From Sphingorhabdus sp. M41 (GTDB lineage: Bacteria; Pseudomonadota; Alphaproteobacteria; Sphingomonadales; Sphingomonadaceae), in assembly GCF_001586275.1 (NCBI RefSeq), contig NZ_CP014545.1, forward strand, positions 2,568,501 to 2,632,500: a stretch of 64,000 nucleotides of DNA, given 5' to 3'. Shown one piece after another: positions 1-24,119 of this stretch; the first letter of the stretch is position 1; each line of letters starts with the position of its first letter. The notes under the pieces were generated by a model. The model worked only from the letters and a program-made list of their open reading frames with translations, searched no databases and was not told where the DNA came from. The position numbers and the translations under genes are program-made.

Positions 1-1
1 T

Positions 2-346
2 GATTTGGTGCTGTTAAGTGACAAAGCTGATCTGAATGACCCAGCACTGACTGCTGCATTTAAAAAGTATTTTGATAAAACGACCGCGCTTTCAAATCGG
101 GTTCAATATTGTGGGGTTGCACTTGTCGGATTTGACGCAGGCTTTTATCCTGCAAACGACACAAAAGCTGTTGCTGAGGAAATTTCTAACGCTGCCAAGG
201 CGGAAATAGAAAACTGGGTCAAACAAATCAGAAATCGAATATCGGTCGAGAAATTAGAAAGATTTCATATTGAATTTTTCTGTGTGCCCATCCCATCGGC
301 AGATGGTTTCCGATCTGCACTATTAAAAGCATTGGGACACCGCTGA
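2..346 (+). CDS. hamA: Hachiman protein HamA (DUF1837), 3' end only
   Basis: C-terminal part of a HamA/DUF1837 protein; the reading frame is open from base 2, so the true start lies left of the window. About 114 residues are visible. The stretch LVLLSDKADLNDP and the ending IEFFCVPIPSADGFRSALL match my recollection of the C-terminal half of DUF1837. In Hachiman, HamA is the effector nuclease partner of the HamB helicase; that role is family knowledge. The identification rests mainly on this C-terminal signature together with the overlapping helicase gene: its TGA (344-346) shares one base with the hamB ATG (346), so the two are translationally coupled. The nuclease active-site region is outside the window. 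Base composition is clearly more AT-rich than the genes from 3343 onward. Confidence 0.75.
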   Translation, partial: DLVLLSDKADLNDPALTAAFKKYFDKTTALSNRVQYCGVALVGFDAGFYPANDTKAVAEEISNAAKAEIENWVKQIRNRISVEKLERFHIEFFCVPIPSADGFRSALLKALGHR

Positions 347-2949
347 TGTCGCTGCCAGATTTACAAAATTGGTTGGTCAACGAAGGCATCAACGCTGATT
401 TGATCAAACTCATAAAAATGACTGCCGCTGCTGAGCTAGACAATGTGAATACGGAATTCGACATTGCCGCTGAAACCAACAACGTTGATTGGCAGCAGCT
501 ACTACTAGCTAGTAGCATTTTAGCACGTTCAGAGAAACGTGATCAACAAGAAGCCGCGCTGCGCATCGCGACCGCTGCCATGACTCTGGAAACGCCACCT
601 CAGATCCGCGATGCAGCGGCGGTAGTGTTTGAGAAATTATCGAATCGACGTGCAGTACAGCTTGCCGAACAACGAGGATATTTGGAACCAAACCTAGAGG
701 ACAGACTGGGAGTATCGATGAGATTAGAGGCATCCCGCCGCGATGCAACACAAGCGATATTGGTTCAATCGGCGGGAGAATGGCTGCCGGTGAATGACTT
801 TCAAAGCGAGTTCTGGGAAAAAGCAGGCCAGAAGGGTAGCTGGCTCTCTGCATCTGCTCCTACAGCGTCCGGCAAGACTTTCCTAGTACTGCAGTGGGTC
901 GTTGATCAAATGCGTGTCGGTCTAGCGCAGATCACAATTTATTTAGCACCAACTCGAGCGCTGGTGACGGAAATTGAAGATAGCTTGCGGGAAATCCTCT
1001 CGCAGTCAGATAACATTGAAATAACTTCACTCCCCTTGGCTGATAAATATACTGCCGCGATAAAAGAAGGCCGCAAACTAATTTTTGTTTTCACTCAAGA
1101 GAGACTTCATCTTTTAGCAAATATGCTTGAGAATAAATTGACGTTAGACTTGTTAGTGGTGGACGAGGCTCATAAAATCGGAGACCATCAAAGAGGGGTC
1201 ATTCTACAAGACGCAATAGAAAGAGTTTCAAGAAATAATCTCGAATTGAAGATTGTATTTGTTAGTCCAGCAACTCAGAATCCCGGTGAACTTTTAGACG
1301 ATGCGCCTGCAAACATCACTCCGCTATCAGTTGATAGCGACAAGCCAATGGTTTTGCAGAACATTATTGTAGCAGAGCAAGTTCCTCGGAAGCCAAAAGA
1401 ATGGAATCTGACACTTCGGACGGGTCACAAAGAGCATGATATTGGAAGACTTCAACTAGGTAGCTCTCCTGCAGGCTTGCGCAAGCGGTTGGCTTTTATT
1501 GCTGCTGCTGCGGGACAAAGAGGCGGCACCTTAGTTTATACTAACGGTGCAGCAGAAGCAGAACAGGTCGCAATGCTGGTGAAACAAGTCTTGCCGAAAG
1601 AAAGCGAGATTGACCCAGAATTAGCCGCACTAGCAGACTTGGCCCGAAAAGGAGTTCACCGCAAGTATCAGCTCGCTCCTTTAGTAGAAAGTGGAGTTGC
1701 GTTCCACTATGGTAACATGCCATCGTTAATACGGATGGAAATAGAACGCCTATTTAGAATGGGGAAAATTCGATTTCTTGTATGTACTTCGACTCTAATC
1801 GAAGGTGTCAATCTTTCGTGTCGTACAATCGTACTTCGTGGTCCACGAAAAGGGCGAGGAAAACCGATGGAACCGCACGACTTCTGGAATCTAGCTGGTC
1901 GTGCTGGCCGCTGGGGAAATGAATTCCAAGGTAATATTTTGTGCATAGATCCAATTGACAAAACCGCTTGGCCTAGTGGTGTACCCGCCCGCGCAAGATA
2001 TCCAATCAAGAGAGAAACGGATTCCGTTCTTGATGATGCAAAAGATATGGTTGATTACCTTGAACGAAGAAAGAATAATCTTATTCAGGACCTCGAAGGC
2101 TCCGATAAGTTCGAACAAGTTAGCGCCTATTTGCTGAGTACCTATTTAAGGTTAGGCTCAGTTTCTGAGGCGGCGTTTGCAAAGCGCCATAACGCAACAG
2201 AAATCGAAAAATTTGATCAAATTTTGTCTGAACTTGCGTCAACCATTGATCTGTCGGTGGACATCGTTGTTCGTCATCCTGGCATCAGTGCCGTTAGCTT
2301 ACAAGCTCTGATGAATACTTTCAGAAGATACGAAGGTGACGTCGAAAATTTACTTCCTGCACCAGCCGACAGTATCGATTCATATGATCGCTTCGTGACC
2401 ATCATGCGCAGGATCAACGCCAATTTATTTCCGGCTTTTCAGCCAGATGGATTGGTTCCTTTGCATTCTCTGATTGTGCTAGAATGGCTCAAAGGGTTTT
2501 CGTTGTCTTCAATAATTAAAAAGCGGATAGAATATCAAGAAAACTCAAATAAGACTTACAAATTACCCGTGCTTATTCGCGAGACAATGGAAATAGTCGA
2601 GCAAACCGCTAGATTTAAAGCGCCCAAATATATTTCTGCATATGTGGATATACTAAAGATATTTTTAAAAGAGGTTGAGAGAGAAGATCTTATAGATGAT
2701 GGGATTGATATTGGCGTAGCGTTGGAATTCGGAGTTTCAAGTCTTACATTACTTTCACTTATGGAACTTGGGCTGTCAAGAATGAGTGCTGTTGCTATGT
2801 ACGAAAAAATTGCTCGAGATGATCTCGACAAAAATGGATGTATTGCTTGGTTTCAAGAATATAATTCACAACTCGAAGGTCTAGAAATCCCTACAATCAT
2901 CGTAACAGAAATTAGACAAAAAATAGAAAAACTGCAGATTGAGACTTAG
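346..2949 (+). CDS. hamB: Hachiman DEAH-box helicase HamB
   Basis: 867-residue superfamily 2 helicase, the sensor/helicase half of a Hachiman anti-phage system. Visible motifs: Walker A APTASGKT (residues 171-178), motif Ia LAPTRALVTE (about 200), DEAH box (273-276), motif III-like SPATQ, motif V TSTLIEGVNLS (about 480-490), and motif VI NLAGRAGRWG (515-524). An N-terminal region of about 150 residues precedes the motor, and about 340 residues of unrecognised sequence follow it. Family knowledge: HamB holds HamA in check and releases its nuclease on sensing aberrant DNA. The start is ATG 346, overlapping the hamA stop by one base (TGATG). The gene is AT-rich with many AAA/ATA/TTA codons, unlike the downstream chromosome, which suggests horizontal acquisition. 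An alternative label would be a generic defence helicase, but the gene order favours Hachiman. Confidence 0.85.
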   Translation: MSLPDLQNWLVNEGINADLIKLIKMTAAAELDNVNTEFDIAAETNNVDWQQLLLASSILARSEKRDQQEAALRIATAAMTLETPPQIRDAAAVVFEKLSNRRAVQLAEQRGYLEPNLEDRLGVSMRLEASRRDATQAILVQSAGEWLPVNDFQSEFWEKAGQKGSWLSASAPTASGKTFLVLQWVVDQMRVGLAQITIYLAPTRALVTEIEDSLREILSQSDNIEITSLPLADKYTAAIKEGRKLIFVFTQERLHLLANMLENKLTLDLLVVDEAHKIGDHQRGVILQDAIERVSRNNLELKIVFVSPATQNPGELLDDAPANITPLSVDSDKPMVLQNIIVAEQVPRKPKEWNLTLRTGHKEHDIGRLQLGSSPAGLRKRLAFIAAAAGQRGGTLVYTNGAAEAEQVAMLVKQVLPKESEIDPELAALADLARKGVHRKYQLAPLVESGVAFHYGNMPSLIRMEIERLFRMGKIRFLVCTSTLIEGVNLSCRTIVLRGPRKGRGKPMEPHDFWNLAGRAGRWGNEFQGNILCIDPIDKTAWPSGVPARARYPIKRETDSVLDDAKDMVDYLERRKNNLIQDLEGSDKFEQVSAYLLSTYLRLGSVSEAAFAKRHNATEIEKFDQILSELASTIDLSVDIVVRHPGISAVSLQALMNTFRRYEGDVENLLPAPADSIDSYDRFVTIMRRINANLFPAFQPDGLVPLHSLIVLEWLKGFSLSSIIKKRIEYQENSNKTYKLPVLIRETMEIVEQTARFKAPKYISAYVDILKIFLKEVEREDLIDDGIDIGVALEFGVSSLTLLSLMELGLSRMSAVAMYEKIARDDLDKNGCIAWFQEYNSQLEGLEIPTIIVTEIRQKIEKLQIET

Positions 2950-3286: not shown

Positions 3287-3342
3287 AATTGAACTAAAGT
3301 AGCTGATCCATTTTGATACGCTGAATTTACAACGACAGCGCT

Positions 3343-5175
3343 CTAATCCATCACCTCACCCCCAACCAACCCCCGCACACTATTCCCCACCAGAAACCCG
3401 CCCGCCAGATCCGCCGCGCGCAAATCCGCCTCGACCGCCTGCCCGCTCTCCAGCAGTTCCGCCCGCAACACGCCCGGCAACACACCGCGCTCCAACTTCG
3501 GCGTCAGCAGCTTGCCGTCGCGCTCGACGAACACGTTCCAGATCGCGCCTTCGGTGACAAAACCCTCGCCATCGACGAAAATCGGGTGGGCGCCCTCGCC
3601 CGGGCCGCCCTCTTCCTTGGCGACCTGATAGACCCGCCGGTCGCTGGTCTTGTGGTGCAGGCGGAAGTCCGCCTTGTCGGCCTGCATCGGCACCAGTCGG
3701 CATTGGACCGGCCCGTCATGCGGGGCGGGCATCGGCTTCAGTTCGATCGCCAGCGCGCCGGACTGGCCGAGGTGCAGGCGGACCATCGCCGGGCTGTCCT
3801 GGTGAAAGGTGATCGCCTGGATCGCGTTGCGGGCGGCGTGGCGGTCGAATTCGAATTGCAGGGTGGCGGCGCTGGTCTTCATCCGTTCGAGATGCGCTTC
3901 CAGCCGCTTGATGCCGCTGGCGGGATCAAAGGCCATGGTTTCGATCAGGTCGACTCTATGGCCTCCTTCCGCATTGGCATCCACTTTCGCAAATCTCCCC
4001 TTGGCGAGGCATTCCCGCCACTCGTCATCCCCATCCGAGTCCGCCACTATGCCAGAGCCGAGACCGATGGAAAGCGTTTCTTTGCCCGATTTGAGGAAGA
4101 AGGTGCGGATCGCGACATTGAAGGCGGCGTCGGAGCGGCCCTGTTCGTCGGGCGCGTCAATGCGGCCGATCGAGCCGCAATAGATGCCGCGCGGGCCAGA
4201 ACCATTGGGGGGGCCTCTAGCGGCCAGTTCCAGCTCGTCGATAATCTCCATCGCCCGGATTTTCGGGGCGCCGGTTATCGAGCCGCAGGGGAAAATCTGG
4301 CGGATTACATCGACCGCGTCGAGGCCGTCCTGCAGCTGCGCGGTGACCGTCGAGGTCATGGTGTGGATGGTCGGATAGGTTTCGACCGCGAACAGCTTCG
4401 GTACCTCGACGCTGCCGCGCTGTGCCACCCGCGACAGGTCGTTGCGCAGCAGGTCGACGATCATCAGATTTTCCGCGCGCTGCTTGGGATCGGCGAGCAT
4501 TTGCGCCTGCACTTTCGCGTCCGCTTCGGGATCGGCGACGCGAGCGGCGGTCCCCTTCATCGGCTTGGCAGTGAGCCGCCCGTCCTTCAGCGCGAAGAAG
4601 AGTTCCGGCGAGAAGGACAGCATCCAGTTGTCACCGTCAAACAGCACGCCGCCATAGCCGGCCTGCGCCCGGTCCCGGATCGCGGCATAAAGCGCCAGCG
4701 GATGTCCGGAAAAGTCCATTTCTGCGCGAAAAGTGAGGTTTGCCTGATAGATATCGCCGGAATGGATATAATTTTGCACCTTTTCGAACGCCGCGTCATA
4801 GGCGGCGCGCGATACCAGGGGCTTGAGCCGCCCCAGCCACGCCCCGTTGCGGTCGGGCAGCGCCTCGGCGACTTCTTCCGGGCTTAATTCCCTGTAATCC
4901 TTGAATATTCCAAACCAGGCCAGCGGAGCGGGCAGATTGTCCGGCATTTTGCCCCGCAACCGCTCCTCCAGCCCGAGCCCCGCTTCGTAGGAAAGATAGC
5001 CGGCAACATGCTGCCCCGCCTTTCGCGCCCGCGACAGGGCGGCAAAACATGCTTCCAATTCTTCCATTTTATCCGCCCGGACAACCGCCACCGGATCCCG
5101 GTAAAGCCGCGCTGGCGCTGGATCAGAGGCCCGCACATCATCGAGCAGGACAAAGGGAATATTTCCATCGAACAT
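3343..5175 (-). CDS. pabB: aminodeoxychorismate synthase component I fused to aminodeoxychorismate lyase (PabB-PabC)
   Basis: 610-residue bifunctional enzyme of p-aminobenzoate (folate) synthesis. The N-terminal about 390 residues are a chorismate-binding PabB domain with GDIYQANLTF (about 137) and the signature CGSITGAPKIRAMEIID (about 297). The C-terminal about 200 residues are a class IV aminotransferase fold, the 4-amino-4-deoxychorismate lyase PabC, with the PLP-binding lysine in HHKTSDRR (about K509) and TEGAIWNVF. The glutamine amidotransferase partner PabA is not in the window. ATG 5175 is preferred over the adjacent TTG 5178 because AGGGGTGG lies just upstream. The gene converges on the Hachiman island and marks the return to GC-rich codon use. 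The fusion is common in alphaproteobacteria. Confidence 0.92.
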   Translation of the reverse strand: MFDGNIPFVLLDDVRASDPAPARLYRDPVAVVRADKMEELEACFAALSRARKAGQHVAGYLSYEAGLGLEERLRGKMPDNLPAPLAWFGIFKDYRELSPEEVAEALPDRNGAWLGRLKPLVSRAAYDAAFEKVQNYIHSGDIYQANLTFRAEMDFSGHPLALYAAIRDRAQAGYGGVLFDGDNWMLSFSPELFFALKDGRLTAKPMKGTAARVADPEADAKVQAQMLADPKQRAENLMIVDLLRNDLSRVAQRGSVEVPKLFAVETYPTIHTMTSTVTAQLQDGLDAVDVIRQIFPCGSITGAPKIRAMEIIDELELAARGPPNGSGPRGIYCGSIGRIDAPDEQGRSDAAFNVAIRTFFLKSGKETLSIGLGSGIVADSDGDDEWRECLAKGRFAKVDANAEGGHRVDLIETMAFDPASGIKRLEAHLERMKTSAATLQFEFDRHAARNAIQAITFHQDSPAMVRLHLGQSGALAIELKPMPAPHDGPVQCRLVPMQADKADFRLHHKTSDRRVYQVAKEEGGPGEGAHPIFVDGEGFVTEGAIWNVFVERDGKLLTPKLERGVLPGVLRAELLESGQAVEADLRAADLAGGFLVGNSVRGLVGGEVMD

Positions 5176-5245
5176 CAACCACCCCTAATTGCTTTTGCAC
5201 CCATTCGTCCATAAGCATGACGAAAGAAAACAGGGAGTGACTTGG

Positions 5246-24045: not shown

Positions 24046-24119
24046 TGGAGGCCCGACCCGGAATCGAACCGGGGTGCGCGGATTTGCAATCCGCTGCGTC
24101 ACCACTCCGCCATCGGGCC
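24046..24119 (-). tRNA. tRNA-Cys (anticodon GCA)
   Basis: Read on the minus strand, the acceptor stem GGCCCGA (5' end at 24119) pairs with TCGGGCC (24056-24050), followed by the discriminator T and an encoded CCA (24048-24046). The anticodon stem-loop GGATTGCAAATCC carries the anticodon GCA for cysteine, and the T arm contains GGTTCGATTCC. Including CCA the gene is 74 bases. All arms can be folded by eye, so confidence is high. Confidence 0.96.

What the first reader, a model, noticed from the sequence alone, without database searches (positions are those of the whole stretch)
1..2949. Hachiman defence system at the window edge in AT-rich DNA
A DUF1837-type C-terminus overlaps a DEAH helicase gene by one base, the hallmark order hamA-hamB. 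The segment to about 3290 is visibly more AT-rich, with AAA/ATA/TTA codons, than everything from 3343 on, so it looks like an acquired defence island whose right border is about 3290-3340. More defence genes may lie to the left.
Basis: partly seen in the sequence, partly recalled or inferred. Interest (0 to 1): 0.7.

Follow-up and report, generated by a model that had tools for sequence, protein, structure and literature searches.

The report
Hachiman type II antiphage system, hamABC
The left edge of the window holds the end of a complete, acquired three-gene bacterial anti-virus system of a kind already described (Hachiman type II), and relatives of its third, unexplained gene also sit beside other anti-virus systems thought to sense abnormal DNA.

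Summary
Confirmed, and ordinary in kind. Together they match Hachiman type II, described by PADLOC in 2021 and shown there to defend E. coli with the system of Sphingopyxis witflariensis (63/62/56% identical here for HamA/B/C). HamA keeps D158/E176-x-K178 and HamB its helicase motifs. The three genes fill a 4.34 kb AT-rich insert (GC 0.445; 0 of 695 other windows as low) that ends at the pabBC stop codon; ten flanking genes gave no credible defence hit. The same slot in five sister species holds other cargo (hicAB, ParE-HTH, methylase plus DndB-like, or small genes), so it is a small turnover hotspot. Not found in my literature searches: DCL proteins like HamC also directly follow the SMC-like ATPase of ABC-3C/Lamassu-like systems (6 of 53 genome loci, 2 of 28 plasmids) and another Rad50/SMC-like ATPase (3 of 28 plasmids). 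This suggests an optional accessory of DNA-sensing ATPases; its function is inferred, not shown.

The parts
1..346 (+). 3' part of hamA (DUF1837 nuclease, HamA). The gene starts 629 bases left of the window, at G000:C1:2567872; whole protein 324 aa (P0001)
   Evidence: PF08878 5.5e-18; PADLOC HamA 2.1e-43; full gene; D158, E176, K178 identical in 50 of 50 aligned relatives
346..2949 (+). hamB (Ski2-like DEAH helicase, HamB), 867 aa, overlaps hamA by one base
   Evidence: PADLOC HamB2 E=0; PF00270 and PF00271; DEAH in 53 of 53, AGRAGR in 52 of 52 aligned relatives
   Evidence: PADLOC HamC2 8.5e-42; PF11523 4.1e-21; PDB 2k0m 4.2e-30
3287..3342 (.). right end of the insert; border at about 3342. 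The left border lies outside the window, at about G000:C1:2567502, 999 bases left of it
   Evidence: BLASTN breakpoints against sister species
3343..5178 (-). pabBC-type gene, right flank of the insert (not part of the system; the gene name is my reading of the sequence)
   Evidence: full or nearly full-length relative in 28 of 32 congeneric genomes, own included

Best explanation
A complete Hachiman type II antiphage system. By homology, HamA (nuclease) and HamB (Ski2-like DNA helicase) form a complex that rests on intact DNA; when HamB loads a free 3' single-stranded end or similar damage-like DNA made during phage replication, its ATPase cycle activates HamA, which degrades phage and host DNA (abortive infection). 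HamC is an accessory that I infer acts at the sensing step, on the ATPase or the nucleic acid it handles, rather than being the killing enzyme, because DCL proteins also follow directly behind ATPases of unlike defence systems with unrelated other components. Shown here: gene content, intact motifs, foreign composition, a variable insertion site, and DCL genes behind several kinds of ATPase. Taken from others' work on relatives: the HamAB mechanism and the anti-phage activity of a type II system. Inferred: that this copy is active, and what HamC does.
For: PADLOC HamA/HamB2/HamC2 hits in the right order; full-length frames and conserved catalytic motifs; 63/62/56% identity to the system tested in E. 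coli; HamAB mechanism and D-E(X)K mutants in PMC12278908; low GC insert at a site whose content differs in all five comparable sister species; DCL directly behind HamB, LmuB-like or SMC-like ATPases.
Against: No activity, expression or phage data for this copy. HamA has no phmmer match to any PDB chain at E up to 1, and HamB's match to the solved ECOR-type HamB (8vx9) is limited to about 93 residues, so the mechanism is carried over from distant relatives. HamC's role rests on gene adjacency; 11 of 28 plasmid DCL loci have no such ATPase by my tests.
Confidence: 0.88

Rival explanations
1. HamC is a protein-recruiting arm: as the DeCL region of plant Pol V helps bind an exoribonuclease, HamC brings a host exonuclease or repair protein to the end opened by HamAB.
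For: HamC is homologous to the DeCL domain of Pol IV and Pol V; [quoted passage not shown]
Against: No exonuclease gene travels with hamC at the loci read; the plant evidence includes flanking QS repeats that HamC lacks.
Confidence: 0.25
2. HamC is an RNA- or DNA-binding chaperone that acts as a brake or immunity factor, keeping HamAB quiet in uninfected cells.
For: DUF3223 of Tetrahymena Mlp1 is needed for full tRNA-mediated suppression, read there as possible RNA chaperone activity (PMC9705548, passages read); the Hachiman of PMC12278908 is mildly toxic when overexpressed; most Hachiman systems lack HamC, as PADLOC finds it with about 3.8%.
Against: A brake absent from about 96% of systems is not essential; no toxicity data exist for type II.
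Confidence: 0.25
3. A decaying, inactive remnant of a Hachiman system.
For: Some relatives are visibly broken: hamB split or interrupted in L060, L062, L102 and L103, and hamC fragments in L111 and L118; H23 keeps only pieces of hamB.
Against: All three frames are full length here and the tested motifs are kept.
Confidence: 0.05

Closest known systems
Hachiman type II (hamABC; PADLOC, PMC8565338), system of Sphingopyxis witflariensis DSM 14551
   Same: Same three genes in the same order; 62.9, 61.9 and 56% identity
   Different: Sequence divergence and genomic site only, as far as seen
Hachiman type I (HamAB; PMC12278908)
   Same: HamA with D-GExK motif and Ski2-like HamB with intact helicase motifs
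   Different: Here a HamC gene is added; HamA shows no phmmer match to PDB chains at E up to 1 and HamB only a partial one
AbpAB
   Same: HamA-like domain plus Ski2-like helicase; a sister species (G018) has an AbpAB-like pair followed by a DUF3223 gene
   Different: No Cap4 nuclease domain in this HamA
ABC-3C / Lamassu-like systems
   Same: Some carry a DCL protein with PADLOC HamC2 match directly after the ATPase gene
   Different: SMC-like ATPase with CTD9 and MC5 components, unrelated to HamA and HamB

Membership tests
Hachiman | HamA of the DUF1837 family | tested here: met
   PF08878 5.5e-18 on the fragment; PADLOC HamA 2.1e-43
Hachiman | HamA D-(G)ExK nuclease motif | tested here: met
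   D158, G175-E176-S177-K178; D, E, K identical in 50 of 50 relatives that align there
Hachiman | HamB superfamily 2 helicase directly downstream | tested here: met
   PADLOC HamB2 1348 bits; PTASGKT, DEAH, AGRAGR present; one-base overlap
Hachiman | phage defence and DNA-end-triggered DNA degradation | not testable with these tools
   needs bench work
Hachiman type II (PADLOC) | DUF3223 gene (hamC) beside hamAB | tested here: met
   PADLOC HamC2 8.5e-42, PF11523 4.1e-21; gap hamB-hamC 28 bases
AbpAB | Cap4-type nuclease domain fused to the HamA-like domain | tested here: not met
   Only the HamA domain in Pfam on the window fragment; whole HamA is 324 aa with no room for it, against 624 aa with Cap4 in G018
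multi-system defence island | further defence genes beside the system | tested here: not met
   ten flanking genes (six left, four right) scanned against PADLOC: only weak SspA/DndA matches (2.7e-7) on one 424-aa gene, read as a PLP enzyme by look

The most novel reading that the evidence does not exclude
HamC/DCL is an optional subunit shared by otherwise unlike defence systems whose sensor is a DNA-sensing ATPase: Ski2-like helicases (Hachiman, AbpAB-like) and Rad50/SMC-like ATPases (ABC-3C/Lamassu-like, and another SMC-like form on Bradyrhizobium plasmids). It would act on the shared step, handling the aberrant DNA (or RNA), and the DeCL domains of plant RNA polymerases IV and V would be kin of a bacterial immune module. 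The solved structure 2K0M, called HamC in print, would then belong to the ABC-3C branch.
Probability: 0.4. Interest if true: 0.6.

Novelty: new member of a known kind. Interest (0 to 1): 0.3.

Why it matters
The locus itself adds one more Hachiman type II system. Two side results have wider use. First, a slot of a few kilobases between a TauE/SafE permease and pabBC is a turnover site for defence and toxin-antitoxin genes in this genus, a cheap place to look for new systems. Second, HamC, called of unknown function by PADLOC in 2021, has relatives behind ABC-3C/Lamassu-like and Rad50/SMC-like ATPases, which turns 'what does HamC do' into a testable question about a step common to helicase- and SMC-based sensors.

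Tried and rejected
Integration by a recombinase at a tRNA: ARAGORN finds no tRNA in the 18.6 kb fetched to the left and one in the window, at 24046; border repeats were only 14-24-mers of 71-88% identity. A dispersed palindromic repeat just inside the left border (2567655-2567681) occurs six times in the genome with up to 3 mismatches, control 0; it may mark the site but proves no mechanism. A fully empty site was not found: the smallest gap, 724 bases in G014, still holds an ORF.

More defence genes to the left: rejected for the six genes scanned there.

HNH-like part in long DCL proteins: the C-terminal part of long forms (about 180-245 aa) shows a C..TG...HVDH.PP.F...H...A.L pattern by eye (reading it as HNH-like is recall; in the Hachiman-linked long forms the D is lost). 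A PDB profile search gave nothing credible (best E 0.58), Pfam gave no consistent family (one member matched DUF5696 at 1.8e-4), and the predicted model of a phage long form failed (pLDDT 35.7). Left open; the HamC here is the short form without this part.

Loss of the nuclease motif in G018's AbpA: the profile aligned only its last 45 residues, so not tested.

First count of partner changes on the DCL tree was inflated: it treated 2K0M and two contig-edge loci as own groups. Recount without them: ABC-3C 1 change, SMC 2, Hachiman 3; with partnered rows only, 3 changes for three labels (the least possible is 2). So repeated trading is only weakly supported. Four rows were dropped before the tree (L063, L111, L116, L118) and identical rows merged; the AbpAB row has a branch of about 10 and its place means nothing. 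L064 (in-frame stop) was left out of the partner count, and L066 gave no match there.

Literature: searches with HamC, DUF3223, ABC-3C, DCL, 'defective chloroplasts and leaves', Hachiman and Lamassu. No held paper has both ABC-3C and DUF3223; the PADLOC paper names DUF3223 and, separately, Lamassu, and the passages I saw tie DUF3223 to Hachiman only. Most subscription papers and bioRxiv preprints were not covered. NCBI's automatic annotation already shows 'DCL family protein' beside 'ABC-three component' genes.

Full report
Observation. The frame open at base 1 ends at 344-346 and overlaps the ATG of the next gene by one base. The window is G000:C1:2568501-2632500 of a 3.34 Mb one-contig genome, so I could read leftwards: the whole hamA starts at 2567872 (324 aa). 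The set is Hachiman type II.

Intactness. HamA carries D158 and G175-E176-S177-K178; among related loci each of D, E and K is identical in the 50 of 50 that align there. HamB carries PTASGKT (172; its lysine in 53 of 53), DEAH (273; 53 of 53) and AGRAGR (517; 52 of 52). The D-E(X)K motif is the one whose double mutation ablated defence in the Hachiman of PMC12278908 (section 9 read); PMC12799240 writes it D-GEXK (passages read).

Nearest tested relative. The genome scan returned contig NZ_NISJ01000011.1 of Sphingopyxis witflariensis DSM 14551 (L079), the source of the type II system that PADLOC's authors cloned and found to reduce plaquing of at least one phage in E. coli (PMC8565338, passages read). 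Identities to ours: HamA 62.9%, HamB 61.9%, HamC 56%.

The insert. Against G003, shared DNA ends at 2567501, 55 bases before the start of a TauE/SafE permease gene, and resumes at 2571842, the base before the pabBC stop codon; the other relatives break at 12-37 bases further out on the left and 13-24 further in on the right. The 4340 bases between have GC 0.445; none of 695 same-size windows in the surrounding 82.5 kb is as low (minimum 0.496). The only genes I recognise in it are hamA, hamB and hamC. ARAGORN found no tRNA near it and no border repeat stood out. Of ten flanking genes scanned (six left, four right) none gave a credible defence match.

A turnover site. A full or nearly full-length pabBC relative is in 28 of the 32 congeneric genomes searched, own included; G004 has a partial copy at a contig end, and G001, G002 and G029 only a distant paralogue. 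The permease is in 8 of 32. In six genomes, own included, the two lie close together on one contig, with gaps of 4399 (own), 1635 (G015), 3596 (G003), 2983 (G024), 1823 (G025) and 724 (G014) bases. Contents differ: hicA-hicB in G015 and G024 (Pfam shown for G015; G024 by 91% identical DNA), a ParE-type toxin with a helix-turn-helix gene in G024 and a similar stretch in G025 (76% identity), a D12 adenine methylase plus a 783-aa DndB-like protein in AT-rich DNA (GC 0.422) in G003, and a small ORF in G014 and G025. None of the five relatives has ham genes there. HamC's PADLOC model hits 2 of 60 genomes searched, own and G018; I did not search hamA or hamB across the genus separately.

Mechanism. 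For HamAB I rely on PMC12278908 (abstract, sections 9 and 17, passages): HamB senses free single-stranded ends with a preference for 3' overhangs, HamA is the DNA-degrading effector, and activation clears phage and host DNA. Nothing here contradicts that for this copy; nothing here tests it. The kinship is distant: no PDB chain matches this HamA by phmmer at E up to 1, and the solved HamB (8vx9) matches over about 93 residues.

Tree. On 74 DCL domains (104 columns; 21 of 71 inner branches well supported), recounted without 2K0M and two contig-edge rows, the ABC-3C label needs 1 change, SMC 2 and Hachiman 3; with partnered rows only, 3 changes for three labels where 2 is the least. So partners are strongly clustered, ABC-3C was probably joined once, and repeated trading is only weakly supported: the long HamC of Rhizobium/Agrobacterium Hachiman and the SMC-linked L065 group apart from the main Hachiman HamC (99/93). 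2K0M falls inside the ABC-3C group (bootstrap 97, SH-aLRT 90), so the structure called HamC in print may belong to an ABC-3C system; I could not read its neighbourhood (one search failed). DCL is optional in ABC-3C too: of 385 genomes of the class, three carry MC5, two without a DUF3223 hit and one (G420) with it far away.

Reading. Hachiman is shown, and the Lamassu/ABC-3C superfamily is thought, to sense aberrant DNA ends or structures (PMC12278908; PMC10586767, passages read). A protein placed directly behind the ATPase of both, with otherwise unrelated components, most simply acts at the sensing step. Precedent for parts shared among Hachiman, Lamassu and other systems is the nuclease-protease pair of PMC12799240 (passages read). 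Against: adjacency only; part of the wider DCL family has no such partner; and the plant and Tetrahymena data point to protein or RNA binding (PMC7714444, two passages; PMC9705548, five passages).

Verdict. The finding is right and ordinary in kind: a new member of Hachiman type II in a small variable site. The shared use of HamC is the part worth following.

Noticed in passing
L046:455-3718 (sister species G003, same slot): An AT-rich pair: a D12 adenine methylase and a 783-aa protein with a DndB/DpdB-like part, a weak Swt1-type HEPN match and, by eye, a nuclease-like N-terminus; possibly an undescribed modification-based defence pair.
   Followed up: partly
L115:3905-7291 and L148:108-2895: The ABC-3C cassette with DCL sits beside an integrase-like gene (L148:4396-5469) and a terminase-like gene (L148:7355-8893; both names by look) on a contig that IMG/VR lists as viral, so it is probably prophage cargo.
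   Followed up: partly
L131:3962-6978 and L149:3992-7020: Sinorhizobium phage AP-16-3 and metagenomic relatives encode a long DCL protein directly upstream of, in the phage overlapping, a Prim-Pol primase gene; a phage version of a defence accessory in the replication module.
   Followed up: partly
L153:204-4136 (Streptomyces mirabilis linear plasmid): A DCL gene lies after the terminal-protein gene tpgA1 and a DEAD/DEAH helicase that shows no meaningful similarity to HamB (best E 0.76); a link to replicon ends is possible.
   Followed up: partly
L104:5482-7279: A DUF2460 phage-tail gene runs in frame into the end of a LmuB-like ATPase just before hamC: a recombination junction or an assembly chimera.
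   Followed up: no
L047:844-936 (sister species G024): Pieces of the pabBC 3' end are repeated on the far side of hicAB, hinting that cargo enters this slot by duplicating the gene end; not seen at the window's own insert.
   Followed up: no
L128:663-3324 (Rhizobium leguminosarum plasmid): An MBL-fold hydrolase gene lies directly before hamA although that HamA has no room for a fused protease; PMC12799240 describes MBL-fold nucleases only with a protease partner in the passages I saw.
   Followed up: no
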